Assembly (NCBI GenBank): GCA_009760855.2
Contig: WPIO01000008.1
Location: 7,682,501 to 7,746,500 of the forward strand
Direction: 5' to 3'
DNA: 64,000 nt
DNA from: Cristatella mucedo
Taxonomy: Eukaryota > Bryozoa > Phylactolaemata > Cristatellidae
Shown here: piece after piece, positions 13,601 to 59,166 of the stretch
How the letters are laid out: every line of letters starts with the position of its first letter
Position numbering within the stretch: the stretch's first letter is position 1
Position numbers and translations under genes: made by a program
Notes under the pieces: model-generated
Seen by the model: only the letters and a program-made list of their open reading frames with translations
Database searches by the model: none
What the model was told of the DNA's origin: nothing

Positions 13601-16600
13601 ACAACTGCTCGTGTGAATGGTCAACGCCCACCAATGCTTAGAGTGATGAGGCGGGTTGACAAAAAGCTCATTCTAGCTCCAAAGGAATTCTCTGGCGAGA
13701 CAGAAAAGAAAAGGCTGGCTGCATCCGATTCGCTTGGCCAGCCAGATGTGCTTGCAACGAGGCTTTAGGATCGAGCCCCCAGCTGACACGTCCGCAGCTC
13801 CGATTAAACCGAAGCTCTGCTCTAGCTGCTTTTTCATAGGTGGCGGAGATAAGCGATTACTCCGACTGGGTCTTGGCCTAGCGGCAAGGCGCGAGCGCTA
13901 AGCAACCCAGGTCCTTCACCTTCGAGTCCGGCAGCTGCCACTTTCTTTGCTGCCCCCTGCAGGCGGTGGCAGAGGCAAACGTCGATACAACTCTTCGGTT
14001 GCCATGTAAATGACGCCATTGAACAGGCCAAGCTCTACTTTTTTCCCCACAGAAACTTGGACGGCCCAAGTGCACCAAAGCAAAATCTCAGGCTACGAGC
14101 TTCGAGAGGGCTACGGCCGCGCTGACCTAGTAGCGGACGGTTTCGTGAACGCCAGTCAGCAGCACGGCAAAAGCTACAGAGCACACGGTGGCTGCAGCGC
14201 AGCACAGCACCCGACTGACCGAAGCGCCTCCGTCCAGCGCCGACCACGCCTCGGCCCGGCCTGGCATGATCACGAGGTCGGCCGACACAGCAGCCACGTC
14301 GAGTGGAATGTGCACGACTTCGGCAGTGAAGTTCTGCAGAAACGCGACAGCGGCAGGATGGAGGCGTGCGCATGCTCCAAGCTTGGCGAGCGCGCGGCGA
14401 GCTCGGTCGAGGACCGGCTTGCTTCGTGCGTCGCCCGCTCGCTCGCTGTGCCTGGCGCAGCGGCTCACCGCATTGCCCATCCACTCGAGAAGCTCCTCTT
14501 CGAGACGCTCGAAAGCGGCGGTGGCAGCGGCGGCTGTGCCTCCATCGCCCTCGGTTCGCAGCCAGCGCGAACCCTGCTGGGCAGCAGCGGCTGCAGCATG
14601 GGCAGCTCCGGGCACGGCCGTCACCACGGCGACGTATAGCAAACGACCCTTTGCGCTGGCGACGATATCTCGCACCGTCTCGCGTGTGTCACCGGCCACG
14701 GCCGAAGCTGTGACGAAGACGGCCTTCTGGCAGCCAGCGGGCACGACCTGTGACGATGAGGCTGCAGGTCAGGGGGTCGAGCATCCTGTGGGCGGGCGGT
14801 CGGCTTGTTGGCAGCTAATGGCATGGATCAGGCTTCCCGGAAGCCTGGCTTCACCGTGGCATGCTACGCAGCCAGCGAGCAGCATTAGGCTGTGCCCAGG
14901 CAAACGGGGAGGGAAGGAGGGGTGGACAGGCAACCTTCGGTAAGACTACCAACACTCGGCTCAAACCGATCGAGCCACTCTGGCGGGCGGATGCCCTCCG
15001 GATGCAAAGCTATTTGCAACTCGCCTGTACCTTACAACGAACATTGCTGGGCCAGAACAGGCTGTCGATGCTGTGCAACAGCTATCAATTCTATAAAGAG
15101 CACAAGTGGGAGCCGGCATGATGCCGCCGTGCTATCGATAAACCACGAACTAAACTGTGGCATCTGGTGCTGCAAACGACCTTCGTGCGACCGGGCACTC
15201 GACACGGTGGACAGCAGTGGTCTGACAGTGGCTGCCGTTCACGGTTGGATAGGCACCAACAGCCGAGAGTTACTGGGCGTGCAGCAGCAGCAGCAGCTGC
15301 TGCTGCCGGGTAGCTCCTGAAATCATGCTAGCATTTCACATGCACCCAGAACCTTGTAGCACACGACTCGACCTGTACAGACGGTGTCATTCACAGGCTC
15401 GGACATGCTGCAACAGCAGCCACCTTTCAGTCCCAAGCCTTCCAGCGATTTCTGGAGAACTGTTCAAATTGCCACTCCTTAGGAATGCAGGCTTAGATAG
15501 AGTTTCTCGACTTGTTTTGCTCGATCTTCCAGCAGCTGTTCATACTATCGATTGCCAAGTCCTTCTCAAGGGCCTCTCGTCTCGTCTCCTGGGCATCACT
15601 GGTACTGAACTGCAATGGTTTAAGTGATATCTCACTAGGAGAATACAGGGAGCTGATGTGAACAGACATATATCATCCAAGGAATGACTGGAGTATGGAA
15701 GGCCTCGGGGCTCTGTGCTTGGTCTGGTTCTTTTCAGTTTATATTCTCCCTCTTGCCAAAGTGATTGCCAGGCACGATCAAGGCTTTCACTTCTATACAG
15801 ATGACACTCAGCTGTAATTTTGCTTCGATCACTCCCAGCCCTCCAGCACATTGAATTCTCTCCTCCCTTGCTCCATGTATTAAATATATCCACACATGGA
15901 TGGCCATATTCTTAAATTGAATGATAATAAAACCAATTTAATTGTTATTGGCAAATCAAATATGATTTAGAAAATGCAAAGGTTAACTCTCACAATCGGT
16001 TCTGCCAGCATATTTCCTGTTGAATCTGCACGAAATATAGGTGTCCTTCTCTAAAGTGGCCTTTAGTTAGACGACCACATAATTCCACAGTCAAGTCTGC
16101 CTACTTTCAGCAACATAACATTGCTAAAATTCGGGCTTGCTTAGACAGGCATACTACATCCAAATTGGTCCATGCATTTGTGACAACTCGTCTTGATTTC
16201 TGTATTCCGAACAGCATCGATGTCAAAGGTCTTGAGGTTTGTGATTCACAGATAATTTTAGACGATGAGGGGGCACACACGGTAGGCTGAATGAGATCTG
16301 CATGTGGTCAGGTAAGTAGGATTTGGTAATAATTGGTGATGACGAAGTGCAATTGTACGAGAAAATTTGGTTGAGTGTGTGACCTCTTTGTGAGTGTGTG
16401 TGTGTGTGTGTGTGTGTGCAGCACGAGTGTCAGCGCTAATGAGTACGAGTGTTCATTCCACTAGAGTCCTTCGGCGGCAAGCACAAGTCTCATCTTTGCA
16501 ACCGTGCTGCTGCTAGCGTACCATTTGTATGTGCAATGCAGGCAAAAGTTAATCAAGCCTGTGCAAAGCCGAGCACTTGAAAGAACCTACACCCAACAGG

Positions 16601-19019: not shown

Positions 19020-19762
19020 AAGTCATACCACATCTAAATTGGTCCATGCATTTGTGACATCCCGTCTTGATTTCTGTAACCCACTGCTTGCTGGTCTACC
19101 GGCTGTGCTCTCAGGCGGTTACAGCTGGTGCAAAACTCTGCAGCGACGCTTGTCTGTCGCGAGCACCAAAGTTTCCACATTACACCACTTCTCGCCGACC
19201 TTGACTGGGACACGGTCAAGCGATGCATCGACTTCAAAGTTCTGTCACTCACTTTTAGGTCCCTTCATTCTTTGGCAGCAGCCTACTTATAAGATCTACT
19301 CTTCCCCCTCCCCACCAGGCTAACCATCGTCACACGAGCTTTTCGGAATCTAACTGTAAACCCATACCTCGTACAATTCTCAAATCTTTTGGAGTCCGTG
19401 TCTTTAGTTCGTACGCTCCCAGAGCCTGGAACCCACTCCCGACTTGCGTCACGATATCTCCTTACGCGTTCACATATAAAAAGAAACAAAAAACGCACCT
19501 ATTTAGGACAGCATTTAGCGGGTCCCTGCGATTCTTCCTTGCTGCGCTTATGCGTGCTGGCACTGTGGATGCCGCTACTAATTATACTTGCATGCTGACC
19601 CCGTTCATGTCGCCTCACCCCTAACCATGTTATTCTTGTTGTGTATTGAGCACGCTACCACTAACCATTCAATCGTGCTTCCTTTGCAGCAAATGTAAAG
19701 TGCCTAGAAAGATATTGAGTTCTCCGAGGACGCTATATCAAATGTATTATTATTATCATTAT
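19020..19762 (+). mobile_element. LINE 3' end, frameshifted
   Basis: It begins at 'KLVHAFVTSRLDFCNPLLAGL', then shifts frame several times across the 'LVQNSAARLVC' and 'LHWLP' segments. It ends with the family's 3' tail and ATT triplets (about 19740-19760). Confidence 0.85.
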
Positions 19763-34389: not shown

Positions 34390-34490
34390 CTACGTTCGTT
34401 GGCACTGTGTCACTTGTCGTTTGATTGTGCTTCCTTTACAGCGAACATAAAGTGCCTGAAAAAGACTAGGTTCTCTGATGGCGCTGTGCA
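34390..34490 (+). mobile_element. Solo LINE 3' tail
   Basis: 'GTGCTTCCTTTACAGCGAAC', 'AAAGTGCCTGAAAAAGAC' and 'GTTCTCTGATGGCGCTGTGC' match the LINE tail. It is the only repeat-family copy I find inside the GC-rich domain. Confidence 0.6.
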
Positions 34491-34837: not shown

Positions 34838-35574
34838 GTGGCCGAAATGAAGTTGGCTCGCTGCGCTTCTTCTGCTTGAGCTCACGACGGCGGATTCTGA
34901 GCGGCGACGGCTGGGCCACTGGTTGCCCCGCTTCGCACCGAGCCTCGCCACGCCTCCCCTACGAGCTTCTTTCGCGGAGCTGAGGCGAGAAAGCATGAAG
35001 AATCTGGTAGTATAGGCTGTACTCAAGTACATACAAGATAATTTCCATACGGAAGACTTAATTGGTGCAGGCAGACGTACAAAAATTAGTGCATCGAGCT
35101 GGCTTTCTAGTTTCTCGAGAAAAAACGCCGTGCCATTTTGGCAGACTAGTTGGCGCCGACCGTTGCCGACGCCAAATGTAGAACGACGTCGACTCGCGAA
35201 GTAAAAAATGTCGTGCAACAAGAACCGAAGTGAAGTTGGGTTAGCACCCAGTAGAAAAATTGGCACGGACCCGAGAAAGAAAAAACAACGTCCTGGCTCG
35301 CGGACGGCCGGCCTATTAGGGCCGCGGTGTGTAACCGGTGGCGCAGCACGAAGTTGGCAAGAAACGACATGCGGAAAGAGCACGGCTTGCCGGAAGTCGG
35401 CAAAGCGACGGAGGAGTGAGGAATGGGATCGCTGTGCACGTCTAGCACGGTCGGCAGGCGGACGAAGTTCCAATGAGTACGACGGCCGCGTCTCTGACGA
35501 ACGGAAGCCTCGCCCGCCAGTCGGCCGCTCGTTCGAGTGAGCGCTGGCTGACGACATCGCCGGGTATCAGCGCC

Positions 35575-37189
35575 CTACGTCATACGGAGGCAGGCGGTCG
35601 ACCCCGGAGAGGAAACGACTTCGATGAAGAACAGTGTCGCCGGGTTAACGAACGGCACGTTCGGCATGTCGGCCGCCGTGTCCATGGGGTTCAGAACGAC
35701 CTGCTTGGTAGTGCCGTCCACGCCGGCCACCGCCCTCGCTTCGTCCACCGCGGCGTCGTTGCGCAGGTACAGCCTGCACGACAGAGCGGCACCGGATGGT
35801 GAGAGCGGCAGCTCGCTCTGTGCAGCCTCGAGGCCAGCCGCAGAGCCCCCGAACTGTCCTCCCTGCTAATGCCGCCTCTTCAACTGCCTGCTCGCCCATC
35901 TCTCCGGGCAGACGCCCCGCCTGCTTACCGGAAATAGGGGCCGGCTTGCAAGCTGATCGCGGAGCCTCCGAACGATTGGTTGGTGATGGGCCAGCCGCCG
36001 AGCATGAGCAGCGTGTTGCTGGGCTGCTTGTTCGACGAGTAGTTGCCGTAGGTGTAAGCCTGCAGCGAGGAAACGCGACTTGGTCGGTCGCACAGCGAGC
36101 TGCGCTCGCTGTAGCAGGGGGGCCGAATGCTTTTGACGTCCGGTAAGGAGGCACCGCCTGTCGACTCGCCTTCCGCCAGCCAGCCAGTCAGCTGTGCCAC
36201 AGCCACGGCCGCCGTACCTTCATCACTCCCGTCGAGCCATTGAAGCCGAGCAACAGATGTCGCTTGTCGGCCGTGTTGTTGCTGAGCTTAACTGTGAGAG
36301 CCATCGGGCCGCTGGCCGAGCCAAAGTAGTTGACAACGAAGCGACCTGACAAGGCGACAGCTCTGAGCTGTAGGAGCTGTCGGCCGAAGCAGTGCTTGGA
36401 GCCGACGCGCCAAGCGCTGCTGCGTTGCAGGCAACTGCCCGCCCCGTTGCAGGCAACCGCAAACGAACCGGTGGCTAGGGTGACTTCGGCAGCGGATTAA
36501 CGAGAGCCGGACGGAGCAGCAGTCAGTAATACAGTTTTTGCGAGTGAAAGAGAGCGGAGCGCGAGAGAGCACTCACTCTCCGGGTCGTTGTGGTTGTACG
36601 TCGCCAGCAGAGCGCTCTGGTCGCTATATGGCCTGCTGACGCCCAAGTAGCCGTTGGTCTCCAAAGACTTTATGACGACGACATCGCAAGTAAGGGGCTG
36701 CAACGAAAAGCCAGATCCGTCTATCAGGCCTGCTGAGCGCCCTGGCGGAGGCGTGTGGCATTCTCAGCCGCCGCCGCCGCCTGTTGCTCGACGAGTATAG
36801 CGATAAGCACCACTTTTCTGCACATTCTTCGTCGGCTCGTTTCTGGCTCTTCTCCACTCGTCCACTCTTCCTCCTCATCTTCTTCCTCTTCTGCTCCCTT
36901 TTTCGCCTCCTGCCCCTCATCCGTCTCGTCACGACCGCATCTCTCTAGTACTTCCGTTCTCTCCAGGTGCACTCCTTCCGTTAACCGTCCGCTGGCGAAG
37001 CACCGGCCGTTGGGTGCATGCACGTGGAGGCTGGCAGCGAGCGCCAAGTGTCCTACAGCAGCTAGTGCAGCCACTCACCAGCTTGATCAGCCTCAGCGGG
37101 GCGGCGTTCAGCGCTTCGAGCCAGAGCAGGAGGGCGACGCTGGCCAGCGCCCTCGCCGCGGTCGCGTAGCTCGCACTCAAGTAGTTCAT
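35575..37189 (-). CDS. Predicted secreted glycoprotein, five exons, about 229 residues, unknown family
   Basis: Exons: 37189-37079, 36697-36577, 36345-36218, 36059-35929, 35773-35575 (TAG). All five acceptors and four donors are canonical and all junctions keep frame. The first exon is a typical signal peptide: hydrophobic core 'LASVALLLWLEAL' at residues 15-27, with a likely cut after 'LNA' (29/30). Four N-glycosylation sequons follow (NNT, NGS, NYS, NQS). There are only two cysteines in the mature part and no second membrane segment, so a soluble secreted or vesicle-lumen protein is likely. 'IKSLETNGYLGVS' and 'DKRHLLLGFNGSTG' recall the repeating strands of beta-trefoil folds, but that is a guess from pattern only. 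An in-frame upstream ATG at 37225 would add 12 residues and weaken the signal peptide, so I chose 37189. Confidence 0.82.
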
Positions 37190-37436
37190 TCTGCTGTCGA
37201 GTCTGTAGAAGAGTGAGACAACCATTGTAGCAGCAGCTGCTGCAGCGATGCAGTCCAGCTGCAGCGTCCTCAGGCCGTGGTCCGGCGGTGGTGGCGTACC
37301 TACCTCTGTCGTCGGAACCTGTCCGCTCGGCTGCAGCTCACGTTCAGTCCTGTACGGGGGCGCTGCTGCTCGCTCTTTGCTCGAATTCGAAAAAGTGGCG
37401 CATTTATGGGCGGGCTGCGGGACAAACCAAGACAAG

Positions 37437-40800: not shown

Positions 40801-42750
40801 TGGTTACAGAACGAGACACTCTGCTCACGAGGCACCTAGGCTGCGAATCTTTATCTCGCCCTCGTGACGCAACGTCTTATCGCTAGCCGCCGCCCACTCG
40901 GGTTGCCCTGCCCGAGGCCATCTCTCGAACCCGAGCGCTCCTCCGATTCCAAGTAGTTCTCGGCGACGCAGTATTCCGCCGGGGCTACCGAGCGAACGCA
41001 AAAAGGTTGTCTTGCCGGGCGGCAGCAGATGCGTCATGGCCTTGAGGCTCGGCAGCCGAAACGCCCCCCCCCCCCCCGCGGGCATCGGTTTCGCTGCCGA
41101 CCGCCACCCGGGTTGCCCGCGGCCATCTCTCGAGTAGGCATTCCCCCTAGGGATGACCACCGTCGGCGGCGCCTCCACGCCGACCGCCACCCGGGTTGCC
41201 CGCGGCCATCTCTCGAGTAGGCATTCCCCCTGGGGATGACCGCCGTCGGCCTGTCCTGGAGTCGGACGGTCATTCGAGCTCTTGGCCGTATGGAGAGCCG
41301 TTGGCGTACTTCATGGCCGCTCCTGAAAGCCTGTAACCACCCGCTGCTGTCGAATAGACTTTCTATTTTACGGATACTGACTTGATAGTCGCTGTTGCGT
41401 TCCTGCTACTGACGGCATACCAGCGTGCATTGGTGCAGCACCTACGAGTAGCTAGCCAGTATTCGTCGACCTTCGGGCTGCGACTAGCGCTGTTACGAGC
41501 GCTGCATTTGAGACCTTGCCGCACGCCGCGTTAGTATCTCGGTGACGGCATTTCAACGGATGTCAACTGACCGATACGGGGCCGATGCGGCGACGGTCCG
41601 AAAAGATGCTTCGGCACGAGCCGAAGCGGGGAGACCAGCCGAGAGCTCACCGCGGGACTCGGCTTCAGTCTACGAGCAAGTCAGTCTTCGCAGCCACCTG
41701 CCAAACCAGCGGGGAGAGCGCGGACTAAGGACTCCCAGAGCAGCGAGCGACTGCCCTTCTCGACATCCATCTTCCTAAGCAGCCCCTGCTGTCGAGTCGT
41801 TTAGGCCTCGGACAATGCTCGCAGCTGACGACTCAGCAGGCGAGCGGCTAGTCATTCGTGGGCGGCCATCCGTCTATCAAACTACGCGGTCGAGCGGTTT
41901 CGGAACGGACAATGGGTGTGCGGTGGGAAACGTGGCGTTCAAAGAATTCATAGGCCGCCTGAGGAGTACATGGGCGAGAGGGCGGTATTCCTCTAATTAA
42001 GCCTGGTTTAGACGGCGAGTCTTGCTTCCTACGTACTCGAGCCTTACTCTGGTCTTCCTTTTTGTTGGAGGTTTAGTAGGGCAGTCATGCTCCAAGTCTA
42101 GCCTCCTTCTCGCTCCGCCCACCGAGCATGGGGAAAATTACTTTTGCAATGAGGGAGGAAATGGCCCTCCGAGATGTATGTCCAGGTGAATTAGAGTTGG
42201 CTGCCGCCATTTACATATATTTTTTAAACCAGGGCAGAAGAAGCCGCCTCAAAATCTGATTTATAAACTCCGAGCTTAGAGTGTCCCACAAACGCAGGAA
42301 CCCTTTCGGAAGGTGTTGACGATTTCGCTGGTCAAGCCGTCCGCCAATTCGTTCAAAGTAATGCAGTAGACATGGCCTGAGCGGCGCTTACGATTGGTCA
42401 CTTGCTAAGTCGTGCCTGAATCTTGGCCGAAGAAGTAGAGCCGGGTTCGGCTGCTGAGTCTTCGTCGAGTCTTTCCTAAGTCTTGGACCTGCATTGGTGA
42501 CGTATACACCGAAGATTTGAGTAGGGAAGAAGCAGGTAGTAAGCAAGACTCAACGTCTAAACCGGGCATTTAAGCCGACCGTCTAGAGTGACTGAACTTG
42601 GCCGGCTCATTTTGTTAGCTGAGTGCTTGTTGTGCCGGTTACTCGTCTCTCGGTCTCACTAACGAGCCCGACGGCCTAGAGTCACGCGATCTAGAGGCAG
42701 TCCCACGACCTCTTGACCTCTGGAGAGTTTTGAATAGAGAGCTCAAAGAA
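37840..42750. other. GC- and CpG-rich stretch without recognised gene
   Basis: About 5 kb almost free of the LINE and SINE families seen elsewhere. Frames are open on both strands because of base composition. I found no run of exons with consistent phases. It contains C/G homopolymers and the 83-bp tandem repeat listed separately. Confidence 0.4.
41097..41258. repeat. Two-copy 83-bp tandem repeat, third diverged copy upstream
   Basis: Two almost identical units start at 41097 and 41180, each with 'CCGCCACCCGGGTTGCCCGC' and 'GGCCATCTCTCGAGTAGGC'. A diverged relative ('GCCCACTCGGGTTGCCCTGC', 'GGCCATCTCTCGA') lies at about 40888-40930. A run of about 15 C precedes the first unit. Confidence 0.9.
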
Positions 42751-42754
42751 AAAC

Positions 42755-43285
42755 GATAATAATAATGATAATAATACACTTGATAAAGCGCCCCCGGAGA
42801 GCTCAATCTCTTTCTAGGCGCTTTACATTTGCGGCAAAGGGAAATGCAATTGAATGGTAAGTAATATCATGCTTGATAAACAAACAACATGAATAACACG
42901 GTTAGGGGTGACCTGCACACGGTCAGCATGCAAATGTGGTTAGTGGCAGCATGCACAATGTCAGCACGCATAAGCACATACAAGACGAATCGCAGGGACC
43001 CGCTAAATGCTGTCATACATAGGTTCGTTTTTCATTTCTTTTTAAATGTAGTCAAGTCAGGGGATGTCGTGACGCAAGTCTGGAGTGAGTTCCAGGCTGT
43101 GGGAGCATACGAACTAAATGCACGGTCTCCAGCGGATTTGAGGTTTGTACGAGGTATAGGTAATCTGTTGGATTCCGAAAAGCGGGTGGTACGATGCTTG
43201 GCCTGGTGAGGGAGTAGATCAGATAAGTAGGCTGGAGCCAAAGAATGAAGTGACCTAAAAGTGAGCGACAAAACCTTGAAGTCGG
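42755..43285 (-). mobile_element. LINE 3' end
   Basis: Tail at 42757-42960 (ATT triplets, 'GCGCCCCCGGAGAGCTCAAT'), then the ORF end on the minus strand: 'LRSLHSLAPAYLSDLLPHQA', 'RTNLKSAGDRAF', 'SSYAPTAWNSLQTCVT'. The frame is open for about 80 codons, so this copy is fairly young, though severely 5' truncated. Confidence 0.9.
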
Positions 43286-47389: not shown

Positions 47390-47578
47390 CTCTTGGGAAA
47401 GACGTCGTGCCGGACTCTGTGCACGTTACCCCTAACCATGTTATTCATGTTGCTTATCAAGCATGATACCACTCACCATTCATTCGTGTTTCCTTTGCAG
47501 CAAATGTAAAGAACCTAGAAAGAGATTGAGTTCTCTGATAGCGCTTTATCAAGTGTTTAATTATTAGTATCATTACTA
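47390..47578 (+). mobile_element. Solo LINE 3' tail
   Basis: 'CTGTGCACGTTACCCCTAAC', 'TTTCCTTTGCAGCAAATGTA', 'AACCTAGAAAGAGATTGAGT', 'GATAGCGCTTTATCAAGTG'. It lies about 350 bases upstream of the longest LINE copy. Confidence 0.8.
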
Positions 47579-47936
47579 TTAACTCTCGGTAACCAGCGAG
47601 GACCAGCAGATGTTCTATTCCGATTGAAAATCAGCTTCCGTGCGGCCAAATGAACTCGTTTTGGCCTCAAGCTGCAGCAGCGTGGTTCGTGCGATTTTTT
47701 CAAGTTTAAGCTCGTAAATACTCTTGATTTGCCTGAGCAGCAGAGATGTCTGCTTACGCTAATTTTCAATAGCAGAGAGCTTATGCAGGTATCTCTCTGA
47801 CGTATGTACTTCCGTGCGCAAACGTTCGCCCTGCGAACCGTCCGGCAACGTCGGCTCAAATAGTAAGCAGACTATCCGTATCTGAGCTTGACGCCAGTTA
47901 TCCGCGAGTAGTGACGATAAAACTAACTAACTAGTT

Positions 47937-48875
47937 ATGGGCAAACCCAATGTGATTCATAAATTGGAAAGGCTTACGCTCAAAATTGGCTCTGCCAGCA
48001 TATCTCCAGTTGAATCAGCTCGAAATCTAGGTTTCATATTCCAAAACTACCTCTCGTTAGACGACCATATCAGCTTCACAGTCAAATCTGCCTATTTTCA
48101 GCTTCATAACATTGCTAAAATTTGGGCTTGCTTAGATAAAGATACCACATCTAAGTTGGTCCATGCATTCGTGACATCCCGTCTCGACTTCTGCAACTCA
48201 CTGCTTACTGGCCTACTGGCATGTGCGATCAGGCGATTGCAGCTGGTGCAAAACTCCGCAGCTAGGCTTGTCTGTCGTGAGCGTCGCAGTTGCCACATTA
48301 CTCCACTTCTCGCCGACCTGCACTGGCTACCAGTCAAGCAACGGATTGACTTCAAGGTTTTTTCGCTCACTTTAAGGTCACTTCATTTTTTGGCTCCAGC
48401 CTATCTCTCAGATACACTTCCCCATCAGGCCAAGCATCGTACCACCCGCTTTTCGGAATCCAACAGTCTACAAATACCCCGTACAAACCTCAAATCCTTC
48501 GGAGACCGTGCATTTAGTTCGTATGCTCCCAAAGCCTGGGCCTCCCTCCCGACCTGCGTCAGAACATCCCCTGACCTGACCACACTTAAAAAGAATTTAA
48601 AAACACACTTATTTAGGACAGCATTTAGTGGGTCCCTGTGATTCGTCCTTGATGTGCTTATGCGTGCTGACACTGTGCATGCTGCCACTAACCACATTTA
48701 CATGCTGACCCTGGGCATGTCACCCCTAACCATGTTATTTATTTTGTTTGTTTGTCAAGCATGATTTTACTCACCATTCAATTGCATTTCCATTTGCGGC
48801 AAATGTAAAGCGCCTAGAGAGAGAGATTGAGTTCTCTGAGGGCACTTTATCAAGTGCATTACTATTATGCATTAG
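47937..48875 (+). mobile_element. Best-preserved LINE 3' half (non-LTR retrotransposon, Jockey/CR1/L2-like)
   Basis: An open frame of 234 codons (47937-48641) encodes the C-terminal part of an ORF2 reverse transcriptase, downstream of the active site: 'ESARNLGFIFQNYLSLDDH', 'LVHAFVTSRLDFCNSLLTGL', 'LVQNSAARLVCRE', 'HITPLLADLHWLP', 'RIDFKVFSLTLRSLHFLAPA', 'FGDRAFSSYAPKAW', and the closing 'HLFRTAFSGSL'. This motif order is typical of the Jockey/CR1/L2 group. The 3' UTR follows to the tail 'AAAGCGCCTAGAGAG ... GGGCACTTTATCAAG' and ATT triplets. The endonuclease and polymerase core are missing (5' truncation), so it cannot move by itself. The intact frame suggests a recent insertion. It serves as the reference for the other copies in this window. 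Confidence 0.93.
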
Positions 48876-51629: not shown

Positions 51630-52290
51630 CCCTTAATAATAATAATAATAATAGTAATAATAATAATAATGCACTTGATAAAGCGCCCTCAGAGAACTCA
51701 ATCTCTTTCTAGGCGCTTTACATTTGCGGCAAAGGGAAATACAATTGAATGGTGAGTAATATCATGCTTGATAAACAAACAACATGAATAACATGGTTAG
51801 GGGTGACATGCACACGGTCAGCATGCAAATGTGGTTAGTGGCAGTGTGCACAGTGTCAGCATGCATAAGCACGCGAAGGACGAATACCCACAGATACCCA
51901 TTAAATGCTGTCCTAAATAGGTGTTTTTAAGTTCATTTTAAATGTGGTCAAGTCAGGGGATGTTCTGGCGAAAGTCGGATGGAGTTCTAGGCTTTGGGTG
52001 CATATGAACTAAATGCACGGTCTCCAGCGGATTTGAGGTTTGTACGAGGTAATGGTAAACTGTTGGATTCCGAAAAGCAGGTGGTACGATGCTTGGCCTG
52101 GTGGGGGAGTAGATCTAAGAGATAGGCTGGAGCCAAAGAATGAAGTGACTTAAAAGTGAGCGACAAAACTTTGAAGTCGATCCGTTGCTTGAGTGGTAGC
52201 CAGTGCAGGTCAGCGAGAAGTGGTGTGATGTGGCAACTGCAGCGCTCACGACAGACAAGCCTAGCTGCTGAGTTTTGCACCAGCTGCGTT
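51630..52290 (-). mobile_element. LINE 3' end
   Basis: AAT triplets (51634-51670) begin the reversed tail. The minus-strand frame reads 'LVQNSAARLVCRERCSCHIT', 'LLADLHWLPLKQRIDFKVLS', 'LAPAYLLDLLPHQAKHRT' and 'GDRAFSSYAPKA', then shifts. It is nearly identical to the copies at 42.8 and 47.9 kb and cut off at about 52290. Confidence 0.92.
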
Positions 52291-55255: not shown

Positions 55256-58200
55256 ATGAAAGGTTTCTCTCGATTCGACCCAGGTATGTATTTTCCTGCA
55301 GGCCCGAAGAGTTGCCAGGTACCTCGAGACGGTTTTCCCAAGGCAGGCACCGGAGAAGCTCTGGCAAAGATGCACGACGCAACCTCGCCCAATGCATCGA
55401 GGTTGGCGGGTGAGTCTTCTCTCGATTCACTGCAGCATGCACTGGTTTGCGAAAAACTGTTTCTTCTGCTACTCGCTTCCTCTCTGCCTATGCCGTTGCT
55501 GCTGAGTGTCCGGTTCTGTCCACAGACTGTGCCAGACCTCGTGAATGGGGCTACGAAGCCAGATTCTTGAATGAGCTGTCGCGAAAGAAAAGCGATGGCC
55601 AATCGCGGAATCGGCCAATCGCGTCGGTCGGCTGCCAGCAAATTCGAGGCGCTGTCAGCAGCAGCTGCGGCCAGACGTCGGCCAGAGATCGGCTCTCTTT
55701 TGCTGCTCCTCTGACCACTTTGGCCCGAACAGGTAGCTCGTTCGCTGCCCCGGCAGCGTGACGGTGTTGCATCTGCTAGGTAGCTGGTGGCCGTAGCTGG
55801 TAGCTGAGTAGCTGGTGCTTGAGAAAGCCTAGCTTTTCGGCAATGCCGACCTGATCAGGCTAAACGATCAAGCTGACTAGTGATGTGAGTGGGCAGAGAC
55901 CATTCGTCCATTCGAATTGTAGTTTTAAGAAGGAAGTCGAAAACGCGAATGACAGTTGCCATCCCCATTGTCGGAGAGCCCTGCAAATCAAGGAAACCTG
56001 AGCCGAGGTTGTTCGAGCCTTCTAGGTCAGTGAGTTGCTCACGGCCGGCAGGCCTGACTGAGGAGGTGCAAGTGCAGGACTGCAGCTTCAGCCATCCTCA
56101 GTGCAGCTACCGTCAATATTTTTGGTCAGTAAAGGGCTGCTGCATTTACTTTTTTGACAGCCTCTACCAGGAGACAGTGCCGCGGTCATGCTCACAACAT
56201 TCGCGAGGTAGCTCAGCTACAAAACTCGCTGCCAGCTATGATGGGTCAGCCAAGATCGCTCGAGTTGAGAGCAAGTCGAGAGGTTTTGGCACTGCCAACA
56301 GCAGACCTGCCTACAGCAGGCATGCCATCCTTTTTGCCGAGTCCAGGCCAACGAACGGCATCATTGTTGATGGCAGGTCTTCAGCAGTGCATCTACGAAC
56401 GTCAGCTGAGAATGCTAAGACTGCGGACGTCACATCTCCGAGAATGCGGCTAGCCGAAAGATACCGAAAAGCCGAGGAGGACACGTTTAAAAAACTCGAA
56501 CGAATGGCTAGTAAGCAACCGGCGCCCAATGCAACCTATATTAAGTATCAGACGTCACCATCGTTGACAGGTTTCGCCGTTGCATGTTCAGCTGCTCTAG
56601 GCCGTCTTTTTTCTAGGGTTTTGTTTTATTCGCTTGAGGCTGACCAATGAATCGCAAAACAAATCAACTCCATGCACCAAGTGTGCTTGATTTGAGCCGC
56701 GTGCATGTACGGGTCCCTTAAAGAGCACAGCATCCATTTGTCCTATTAATTTTAACTGGAAAACTTTCGTTCATTTTAATATTCTGTTGCCATTATCTTT
56801 AGCCATGGCATGGGTTATTATTTATCAGTGATAGTTATATCTACATGCTACAGAGGCTAGAGGCACGTGTTCTTATATAGCGACAGAAGAGCCTTTACGG
56901 CTATCACCACCACTTGCAGTAGCGATAAAGAACCACCCACCGCAGGAATCAAACCCACGACCTCGGGACCGAGGTCGTGAAAGCAACCGCCTTACCTAGT
57001 GTGCTATCACGGCTAACCGCCTTACCTAGTGTGCCATCACGGCTAACCTTATGGCGGTCGTTATTGGAGCCTGCCTCAAAAAATTAGCCACCGCCTGAGG
57101 TAGCTGTCAGTCATTCTCCTGAGAATGGCAAACAAAACTCTCGCAAGCTGATTGCAGAATATCGTGGCGATACTGGGACAAATTGAGTATTTTTAGGTGA
57201 ACATTGAGATATAAAGGTAGAAATTTAGATTATGAAATAGATTTGATTGGAATGCTGGTTTCTGAGAGATGACTTGCTTAGTATTTTGACCGTCCTGAAA
57301 TAAGCAATCAATCGTGTGGACACGGCACTGTCTTGAAATTGTAAGTTGCCCTTGCTGCATGTTCTTTGTTTGATCAGACCTTTCGCCTTACTTCAAGTTC
57401 AGTTGCATTACTATTGGATCTGCCGATGGTGTAGATGCTATGGATGTCATTTAATGGTAGCTTTGGTTCGCGAAAGTGATGTCTGCATGCTCGCCGAGTA
57501 TAAGCTTCGGTAGTTTTCTTATTGTCTTCATTTAGAGTGATGCCAATAGACTTGGAAACTCGAGAGACATTTGAAGCCCCAACTTGCCAATAAGGTCTCA
57601 AAATCTTATCGTGTCGACAGCCATTCAACGATAATCTCTCTCAACTAATCCTTTAATATTGGAATGTTTCCAGGGCTCTCCGCTCACGGCCAAAGATCCT
57701 CCGACGTCGCCACTGTCACTCTTAACAATCAGTTGGTTTGGACAACCAGGTTGACGCCAATCTGTCCAGATGTGGACAGCCATGTGAAACCACCATTCTC
57801 GAAACTTTGCCTCTGGGCACTGCAGAATCGACTTCGACTAAAGCAAGACGAGCAGCTGCGGCTGACAAAGCAAGTCGCCGATGCCGAGCTTCGAATGCAG
57901 AGGCTGGAACTCGAGTGCCGCCTTTCGGCGACTGCTCTACGAGAGCAGCTCACGGTGAGTGCGGCCAAGGCGTCACCGAGCGGTGAGTTGCTGACCAGCA
58001 TAACAGCCAGTCTAACTGCCAGCACTGGACAAGTTCGCATTTCAGCGTTTCGGGTGCGGGCTCAGGACACCCCCTCGTAGTCTACATATTAGCCCGTTGC
58101 GAATGTTGGCTTGCTTGAGCTCATGCATGCACAACAAATATCAGTGCTTACTGGCGTGACTTAAGCCACATAACGAGATCAGATGGGCTGGTCACTGCAG

Positions 58201-59166
58201 ATCGTCGATTCTAAAATCTGTCGGCTGAGCCTGCAACTGGACGAGCTGCTGCTTGGCGAGACGAGACTGAAGCTTCAGCAACAGCCATCACTGATGGAGC
58301 AGCCACCAGTACAACGACGGCAAGTGACGGTGGGGCCGCAGCCCTGGCATGCGGAGCCGCCTTCGAAGCTTTTGCAGCCACTACTGCAGCAGCAGCAGCA
58401 CGGGTCGTGGCAGCAGCCATCGTGGAAGCAGCTACTGACACAAGCTAGTTTGAATAGCTTGATAAGAAGTAATAACGACAGTGGCATGCAATTGGAAACG
58501 CTTGATCGGCTAGGGGATGCTCACCTTGAGACAGTGAACTGCGATAGAGGCGATAGCAGCTTGCATCGGCCGAAGCCAGCTTTCCTGGAGATCGTCGGTG
58601 ACGGCTCGGCCACGAGGGGCAGCCTGCTTCTGCATCAGCTGCCTAATCGTTGGCCGGCTCGCTCTGAGGCCGGCGGTGGTGTCCGAAGCATCAGCGCTAG
58701 CCGGCAGCGCCGGGGCCTGCTTTGTGCTTCAAGCTCATTTTTTGGCACCTCCTCGTTTGCCCCGTTGACGGCACGCGAAGCCACGCACCCGAACGTCCTG
58801 CTGCTGTCACCAATTGCTGAAACGTCATGCGCTGCCTCTGGCGGCTGCCAGCAGGGCGAGCTAGCGTGGGAGTCTGCTCGTCAGACGTCGACCACTTCCG
58901 TCCGTGCAGACGTCCGGTCGCCTGCCGAAATAGCAGCAAAGCCCCCCCCCCCCCCCCGCTTGAACTGCTCGACCTGTCAACGTTTGCTCGGACCAAAGCA
59001 GTCGACTTCCCCGTCGTATCTGCATGCCGTCAATCGATTGCCTTCGTCAGGCCACTTTGCACTTTTGCTAATGAGGTCGTTCACAGAGCGAAAAGACGTT
59101 CGAGCTTCCAGAAGCTCAGGCCACCGCTGCAGCGTGCAAGGGCAACTACGTGCGCTGTTGCATTAG
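55256..59166 (+). CDS. Coiled-coil protein of about 717 residues, six exons, unknown family
   Basis: Exons: 55256-55409, 55526-55732, 55890-56025, 56161-56570, 57674-57954, 58201-59166 (TAG). Every junction keeps frame. Donors at exons 1 and 5 are GTGAGT; acceptors at exons 2, 4, 5 and 6 are strong. The exon 3 acceptor (GATGTGAG) is weak and uncertain. The sequence has a basic, serine-rich first third; 'MRLAERYRKAEEDTFKKLER' near the end of exon 4; a leucine-heptad coiled coil in exon 5 ('WALQNRLRLKQDEQLRLTKQ' and onward) that continues into exon 6 ('ICRLSLQLDELLLGE'); then a glutamine-rich and proline-rich tail with a five-proline run encoded by a long C tract (58944-58961). No enzyme motif, signal peptide or membrane segment is visible. 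A structural role, for example at cytoskeleton or centrosome, is only a guess. AATAAA at 59275 fits as its poly(A) signal. Further 5' exons are possible. Confidence 0.72.
56868..57050 (-). mobile_element. tRNA-derived SINE, long-head subtype, with duplicated A-box end
   Basis: A complete minus-strand copy in intron 4 of the coiled-coil gene. Its 5' end, 'AGCCGTGATAGCACACTAGG' onward, is repeated in tandem as a unit of about 31 bases (about 56986-57046), giving two A-box-like motifs before one B box. Confidence 0.88.
57060..57660. other. Intron part without recognised element
   Basis: AT-rich sequence between the SINE and exon 5 of the coiled-coil gene. An 84-codon minus-strand frame (57374-57628) has no family motif. 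Confidence 0.35.

What the first reader, a model, noticed from the sequence alone, without database searches (positions are those of the whole stretch)
35575..37189. Compact gene for an unplaced secreted glycoprotein
Seen: five exons with nine canonical splice sites and consistent phases, a clear signal peptide, four N-glycosylation sequons, no membrane anchor. I cannot match the 200-residue mature part to any family. Strand-like repeats around 'NGYLGV' and 'LLLGFNGSTG' hint at an all-beta domain (inference). It is the best candidate here for an undescribed protein.
Basis: partly seen in the sequence, partly recalled or inferred. Interest (0 to 1): 0.72.

Follow-up and report, generated by a model that had tools for sequence, protein, structure and literature searches.

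The report
Unplaced secreted-protein gene, probably animal
This looks like a real five-exon gene for a small secreted protein that matches no protein family in the libraries we could search, but without relatives, expression data or a structure it is best regarded as an ordinary unplaced secreted protein whose fold and job are still guesses.

Summary
On the minus strand, five exons (37189-37079, 36697-36577, 36345-36218, 36059-35929, 35773-35575) joined at four GT-AG introns encode 229 residues with a signal-peptide-like start, four sequons and no membrane anchor; the coding introns have eight splice sites, not nine. Chance is very unlikely: the spliced frame's codon-position periodicity is reached by 0 of 2000 shuffles, 0 of 2111 contiguous stretches and 0 of 3000 random five-exon models. 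A 5'UTR intron and CATAAA box are probable.

The family is unplaced: no Pfam or PHROGs hit at E up to 10; NCBIfam and PDB sequences give only non-credible ones. No relative turned up in prokaryote, viral, phage or plasmid DNA.

Best guess: a secreted all-beta domain, beta-trefoil rather than C1q-like, with C41 and C225 tying its ends. Internal-repeat tests did not support this significantly. Eukaryotic databases were not searchable, so novelty is unproven.

The parts
37403..37408 (-). CATAAA TATA-like box (inferred core promoter)
   Evidence: pattern scan; consensus only
37304..37385 (-). probable non-coding 5'UTR exon (upstream limit is arbitrary), no ATG inside
   Evidence: inferred
37203..37303 (-). 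probable 5'UTR intron (GTAGGT...TCTACAG, 101 nt)
   Evidence: donor in top 0.6% of all GT, acceptor in top 0.3% of all AG on this strand by simple scores; one search printed it one base short
37079..37189 (-). coding exon 1: ATG and signal-peptide-like start, residues 1-37
36577..36697 (-). coding exon 2: residues 38-77 plus the first base of codon 78; C41, NGYLGV
36218..36345 (-). coding exon 3: rest of codon 78 to residue 120; sequons N100, N113
35929..36059 (-). coding exon 4: residues 121-163 plus two bases of codon 164; sequons N126, N147
35575..35773 (-). coding exon 5: last base of codon 164 to residue 229 and TAG stop; C225

Best explanation
A genuine nuclear protein-coding gene, most likely of an animal, makes a 229-residue precursor. 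The signal peptide is removed, probably at A29|A30, and a soluble protein of about 200 residues (21.4 kDa before sugars) is secreted. I think the mature part is one all-beta domain, most likely a beta-trefoil: three copies of a four-strand unit (A: CDVVVIKS / NGYLGV / ALLATY / RFVVNYF; B: LTVKL / HLLLGF / VMKAYTYG / NTLLML; C: AISLQ / YFRLYL / ARAVAGV or KQVVLN / TLFFIEVV), with the only two cysteines, C41 and C225, next to the first and last strand and able to bond, tying the ends that meet in a trefoil. It would act outside the cell as a binding protein, a lectin or a receptor ligand, recognising sugar or protein through its loops, with sugars on loops of the middle unit. Shown: gene structure, coding nature, secretion-type start, two cysteines, sequon positions. 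Inferred: glycosylation, disulphide, fold, binding role.
For: Gene. Secretion-type N-terminus and no other hydrophobic segment. Only two cysteines in the mature chain (count; positions). A crude strand scan gives 11 strands, with all four sequons between strands: three strands in exon 2, three in exon 3, two in exon 4, one across the exon 4/5 junction and two in exon 5; AISLQ would be an unscored twelfth. The layout in three units is my reading by eye.
Against: No match to a trefoil family in Pfam at E up to 10 and no trefoil chain among the PDB sequence hits. Three-way internal similarity is not significant (5 of 60 shuffles), and its best cut is not the register I propose; MAFFT does not align the three units. 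Eleven strands is within the shuffle range and total strand residues (51) are below the shuffle mean (53.8). Unit C needs an insertion of about 20 residues. A profile of the MAFFT repeat alignment finds kelch-like, SAKe6 and penton chains at E 0.096-3.3 and no trefoil I recognise.
Confidence: 0.4

Rival explanations
1. Secreted jelly-roll protein of the C1q/TNF type (cerebellin-like): the stretch SNKQPSNTLLMLGGWPITNQSFGGSAISLQ would be the middle strands of a C1q-like domain, which would assemble as trimers.
For: The best PDB sequence hit is the cerebellin-1 part of 5kca_A over the LMLGGWPI stretch: whole-sequence E 0.0088 for the C-terminal query, 0.016 for the query from residue 39, 0.042 for the full protein.
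Against: The E-value sums three near-identical cerebellin copies in one chain; each copy scores only 4-5 bits with its own E near 300. No C1q or TNF Pfam hit at E up to 10. The C1q-type C-terminal FSGF motif (recalled) is absent, and residues 38-78 would be left over.
Confidence: 0.15
2. Another all-beta or mixed secreted fold (for example Kunitz-STI-like inhibitor, lipocalin, ependymin-like or a novel fold) of unknown role.
For: No family assignment at all; crude strand content is compatible with many beta folds and is not above chance.
Against: No Pfam model of any family was listed at E up to 10. Absence of a hit does not exclude a diverged member.
Confidence: 0.4
3. The gene is real but the model is incomplete: exon 5 is not the last exon, an exon inside intron 1 is missed, or the N-terminus starts at the in-frame upstream ATG if the 5'UTR intron is retained (12 extra residues).
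For: Downstream of the stop there is no AATAAA for 2.7 kb and none of 12 scanned poly(A) signal variants for 1.9 kb. The segment with the most protein-like composition in the whole window, an acidic low-complexity stretch at 36760-36930 on the same strand, lies inside intron 1. An in-frame ATG lies in the putative UTR intron.
Against: The stretch in intron 1 shows no excess of GC at its third position (0.72/0.40/0.56), unlike the five exons. Codon-position bias is strong up to the terminal exon. Of the 60 of 83 segments printed, the two that lie within 1.2 kb downstream on this strand (34967-35140, 34413-34475) have third-position GC of only 0.43 and 0.57. The UTR splice sites score well.
Confidence: 0.2
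4. Chance exon chain in GC-rich DNA, no gene.
For: Single sequence, no RNA evidence, no relatives found.
Against: 0 of 3000 random valid five-exon models, 0 of 2111 contiguous stretches and 0 of 2000 shuffles reach its codon-position periodicity.
Confidence: 0.03

Closest known systems
Secreted single beta-trefoil proteins (FGF, IL-1, ricin-type lectins): recalled, not matched
   Same: Size, soluble single domain, hydrophobic strands that can be laid out by eye as three four-strand units
   Different: No Pfam or PDB sequence match; no significant internal repeat; longer third unit
Cerebellin/C1q-domain proteins
   Same: Secreted proteins; weak similarity over about 30 residues around LMLGGWPI
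   Different: Per-copy scores of 4-5 bits, no Pfam C1q hit, extra N-terminal region
Lineage-restricted secreted ('candidate orphan') proteins
   Same: Signal-peptide-like start, small, no recognised domain
   Different: Orphan status not established: only prokaryote, viral, phage and plasmid DNA, Pfam, NCBIfam, PHROGs and PDB sequences were searched

Membership tests
Secreted soluble protein | N-terminal signal peptide, no other membrane segment | tested here: met
   Hydrophobic windows only between residues 4 and 35, acceptable cleavage after A29; simple rules, no trained predictor available
N-glycoprotein | Occupied N-X-S/T sites | not testable with these tools
   Four sequons present, a number within chance, 911 of 5000 shuffles; occupancy needs experiment
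Beta-trefoil superfamily | Match to a trefoil family profile or chain | tested here: not met
   0 Pfam families at E up to 10; no trefoil chain among PDB sequence hits
Beta-trefoil superfamily | Three homologous four-strand units | tested here: inconclusive
   5 of 60 shuffles reach the observed self-similarity; MAFFT does not align the units; 11 strands by a crude scan, within shuffle range
Beta-trefoil superfamily | Three-dimensional fold | not testable with these tools
C1q/TNF superfamily | C1q or TNF domain profile match | tested here: not met
   0 Pfam families at E up to 10; cerebellin stretch only 4-5 bits per copy
Fibroblast growth factor | FGF domain profile match | tested here: not met
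   0 Pfam families at E up to 10; no FGF chain in PDB hits at E up to 10
Ricin-type lectin | QxW repeats (recalled) and profile match | tested here: not met
   0 Pfam families; the mature chain has a single Trp, in GGW

The most novel reading that the evidence does not exclude
The gene founds an undescribed animal family of secreted, disulphide-closed beta-trefoil proteins, acting as extracellular lectins or cytokine/growth-factor-like ligands, encoded by four exons of about three strands each.
Probability: 0.12. Interest if true: 0.5.

Novelty: new member of a known kind. Interest (0 to 1): 0.22.

Why it matters
If confirmed it adds one well-defined gene model for a secreted protein without a recognised domain. 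Such proteins can turn out to be lineage-specific lectins, ligands, inhibitors or structural secretions (general knowledge). It would matter more if a structure showed a trefoil unrelated in sequence to FGF and IL-1, which would bear on how often animals have evolved secreted trefoil ligands. As it stands it is one of many unplaced secreted proteins. One paper, of which I saw the outline and abstract, reports that a 2023 set of bacterial orphan genes shrank by about 81% on re-analysis within two years as databases grew (PMC12755737). That is bacterial, but it advises caution about novelty.

Tried and rejected
Searches for relatives: GTDB genome contigs (86 pattern stretches, 0 confirmed), viral contigs (2 stretches, 0 confirmed), phages (1 place, E 5), plasmids (none at E up to 1), window paralogues (beyond the gene's own exons the best has E 0.69). 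The first three of these need close relatives or exact short peptides and would miss distant ones. The host's own genome (genome search) was asked 11 times and never answered.

PDB hits rejected as chance: viral attachment glycoproteins (E 0.15-0.51 over 44 residues), a DUF4221 protein (E 1.7), a chlorophyll-binding protein (E 1.2). The profile of three putative repeats (A1) gave 8 hits, kelch-like 3, four SAKe6 sequences and adenovirus-type penton chains, at E 0.096-3.3, rejected. NCBIfam TraB at E 0.078 (11.9 bits against a cut-off of 882), rejected.

Attempts to name the organism: other ORFs against Pfam (0 of 10 and 0 of 10 reach a curated cut-off) and two against the PDB (best E 0.0016, a bacterial periplasmic chain, over residues 53-197 of an Ala-rich ORF; best E 1.6). 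Rfam at gathering scores: 0 matches; the 12 sub-threshold ones lie mostly in simple repeats. A LINE-like fragment (label recalled) found no contaminant relative in prokaryote or viral contigs.

Papers: three keyword searches, of which I saw listings and abstract starts, and the outline and abstract of PMC12755737. I recognised none as describing this protein, but a sequence cannot be searched that way, so this says nothing about its being in print.

Full report
OBSERVATION. The finding's gene lies on the minus strand. Joining 37189-37079, 36697-36577, 36345-36218, 36059-35929 and 35773-35575 gives 690 bases with one stop, at the end, and 229 residues. All four introns begin GT and end AG (381, 231, 158 and 155 nt), phases 0, 1, 0, 2, and reading through any of them in frame meets a stop. 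By simple scores these are in the top 0.3% of AG and 0.6% of GT on this strand. In the resulting leader the first ATG is 37189, with A at -3. A CATAAA box lies at 37408-37403. The promoter and the UTR intron are consensus matches only.

CHANCE. The spliced frame has GC 0.54, 0.46, 0.85 at codon positions 1, 2, 3, with the third highest in each of the five exons. Its base-by-position chi-square is 106.4. It is reached by 0 of 2000 shuffles (maximum 25.3), 0 of 2111 contiguous 690-base stretches of the window (maximum 69.2) and 0 of 3000 randomly drawn five-exon GT-AG open models of 500-900 bases (maximum 68.4, scaled for length). In the last control, minus-strand models that overlapped the gene were dropped and not counted, and plus-strand models over the gene region were allowed. 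The introns score 11.3. I take the gene as real. The splice sites vary: the four coding donors are in the top 0.3-2.9% of GT, the four coding acceptors in the top 1.7-17% of AG, that of exon 3 being weakest.

RESULTS AGAINST THE MODEL. Downstream of the stop there is no AATAAA until 2.8 kb away, and none of the 12 poly(A) signal variants scanned until 1.9 kb. In a scan for protein-like composition, parts of exons 2 to 5 are among the 60 of 83 segments printed (at places 4, 9, 14 and lower), but exon 1 is not, and the top segment of all, an acidic low-complexity stretch at 36760-36930 on the same strand, falls inside intron 1. It lacks the third-position GC excess of the exons, so I leave it as intron, but a missed exon or an incomplete 3' end is possible.

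PROTEIN. The first 35 residues hold the only hydrophobic segment, with acceptable cleavage after residue 19, 26 or 29 by a simple rule. Residues 30-229 have a calculated mass of 21.4 kDa, pI 8.6 and two cysteines, C41 and C225 (positions). Four sequons exist, but this many or more arise in 911 of 5000 shuffles, so their number is no evidence for glycosylation. All four lie between strands in a crude propensity scan, which finds 11 strands; neither the number nor the total length of strands exceeds shuffles.

FAMILY. Pfam 0 families at E up to 10; PHROGs 0; NCBIfam 1, non-credible. PDB sequences: cerebellin-1 fusion 5kca_A at 0.042, 0.016 and 0.0088 with the full, mature and C-terminal queries, but 4-5 bits for each of its three copies; viral attachment glycoproteins at 0.15-0.51, DUF4221 at 1.7 and a chlorophyll-binding chain at 1.2, all taken as chance. 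Prokaryote, viral, phage and plasmid collections gave no credible relative. No eukaryotic sequence collection was on offer, and the host genome search was unanswered 11 times, so 'unplaced' here means unplaced in these libraries.

FOLD AND ROLE. By eye the mature chain can be laid out as three four-strand units with the two cysteines next to the first and last strand, which is what a beta-trefoil with tied ends would look like. Tests of that idea were weak or negative: three-way self-similarity is reached by 5 of 60 shuffles and its best cut is not my register, MAFFT does not align the units, and a repeat profile finds no trefoil I recognise. I keep beta-trefoil as first guess (about 0.4), C1q-like jelly roll at 0.15 and other folds at about 0.4. 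The role, an extracellular binding protein such as a lectin or ligand, follows only from secretion and presumed fold.

SETTING. The gene sits in a GC-rich stretch (0.60 at 34-38 kb, 0.55-0.59 at 38-42 kb) of a window otherwise mostly 0.42-0.51, with 0.51-0.57 at 8-18 kb. Dispersed repeats fill other parts (which lists 20 of 21 direct families and 25 of 80 inverted pairs). One repeated ORF reads to me like the end of a LINE reverse transcriptase (label recalled; Pfam gave no such hit). The introns, repeats and that ORF suggest an animal, which I could not name; this is inference.

VERDICT. Observation confirmed; 'undescribed protein' cannot be decided here. It is an ordinary unplaced secreted-protein gene until a search of eukaryotic databases and a structure say otherwise.

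Noticed in passing
57649-59163, + strand: The contiguous stretch with the strongest codon-position periodicity in the window starts at 57751 (chi 69.2); ORFs 57649-58077 and 58174-59163 look Gln-rich and coiled-coil-like by eye. Probably another gene; neither reaches a Pfam cut-off.
   Followed up: partly
14040-14940, strand uncertain: Stretch with strong codon-position periodicity (chi 60 at 14071); Ala-rich ORFs are open on both strands (14130-14768 minus, 14149-14940 plus). The minus ORF has no Pfam hit and only a weak PDB match, E 0.0016.
   Followed up: partly
36760-36930, - strand: Acidic low-complexity open stretch inside intron 1, the highest-scoring segment of the composition scan; without third-position GC excess.
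   Followed up: partly
19025-19762, 42746-43284, 47428-48824, 51641-52287: Dispersed repeats about 80-91% alike in both orientations; the ORF at 47931-48638 reads like the end of a LINE reverse transcriptase (recalled label, no Pfam hit).
   Followed up: partly
41096-41250: About 1.9 copies of an 83-nt GC-rich tandem unit, 97% matches.
   Followed up: no
35149-35574, - strand: The frame stays open for 142 codons directly after the stop of the gene, in the same frame; by eye the composition does not look coding.
   Followed up: no
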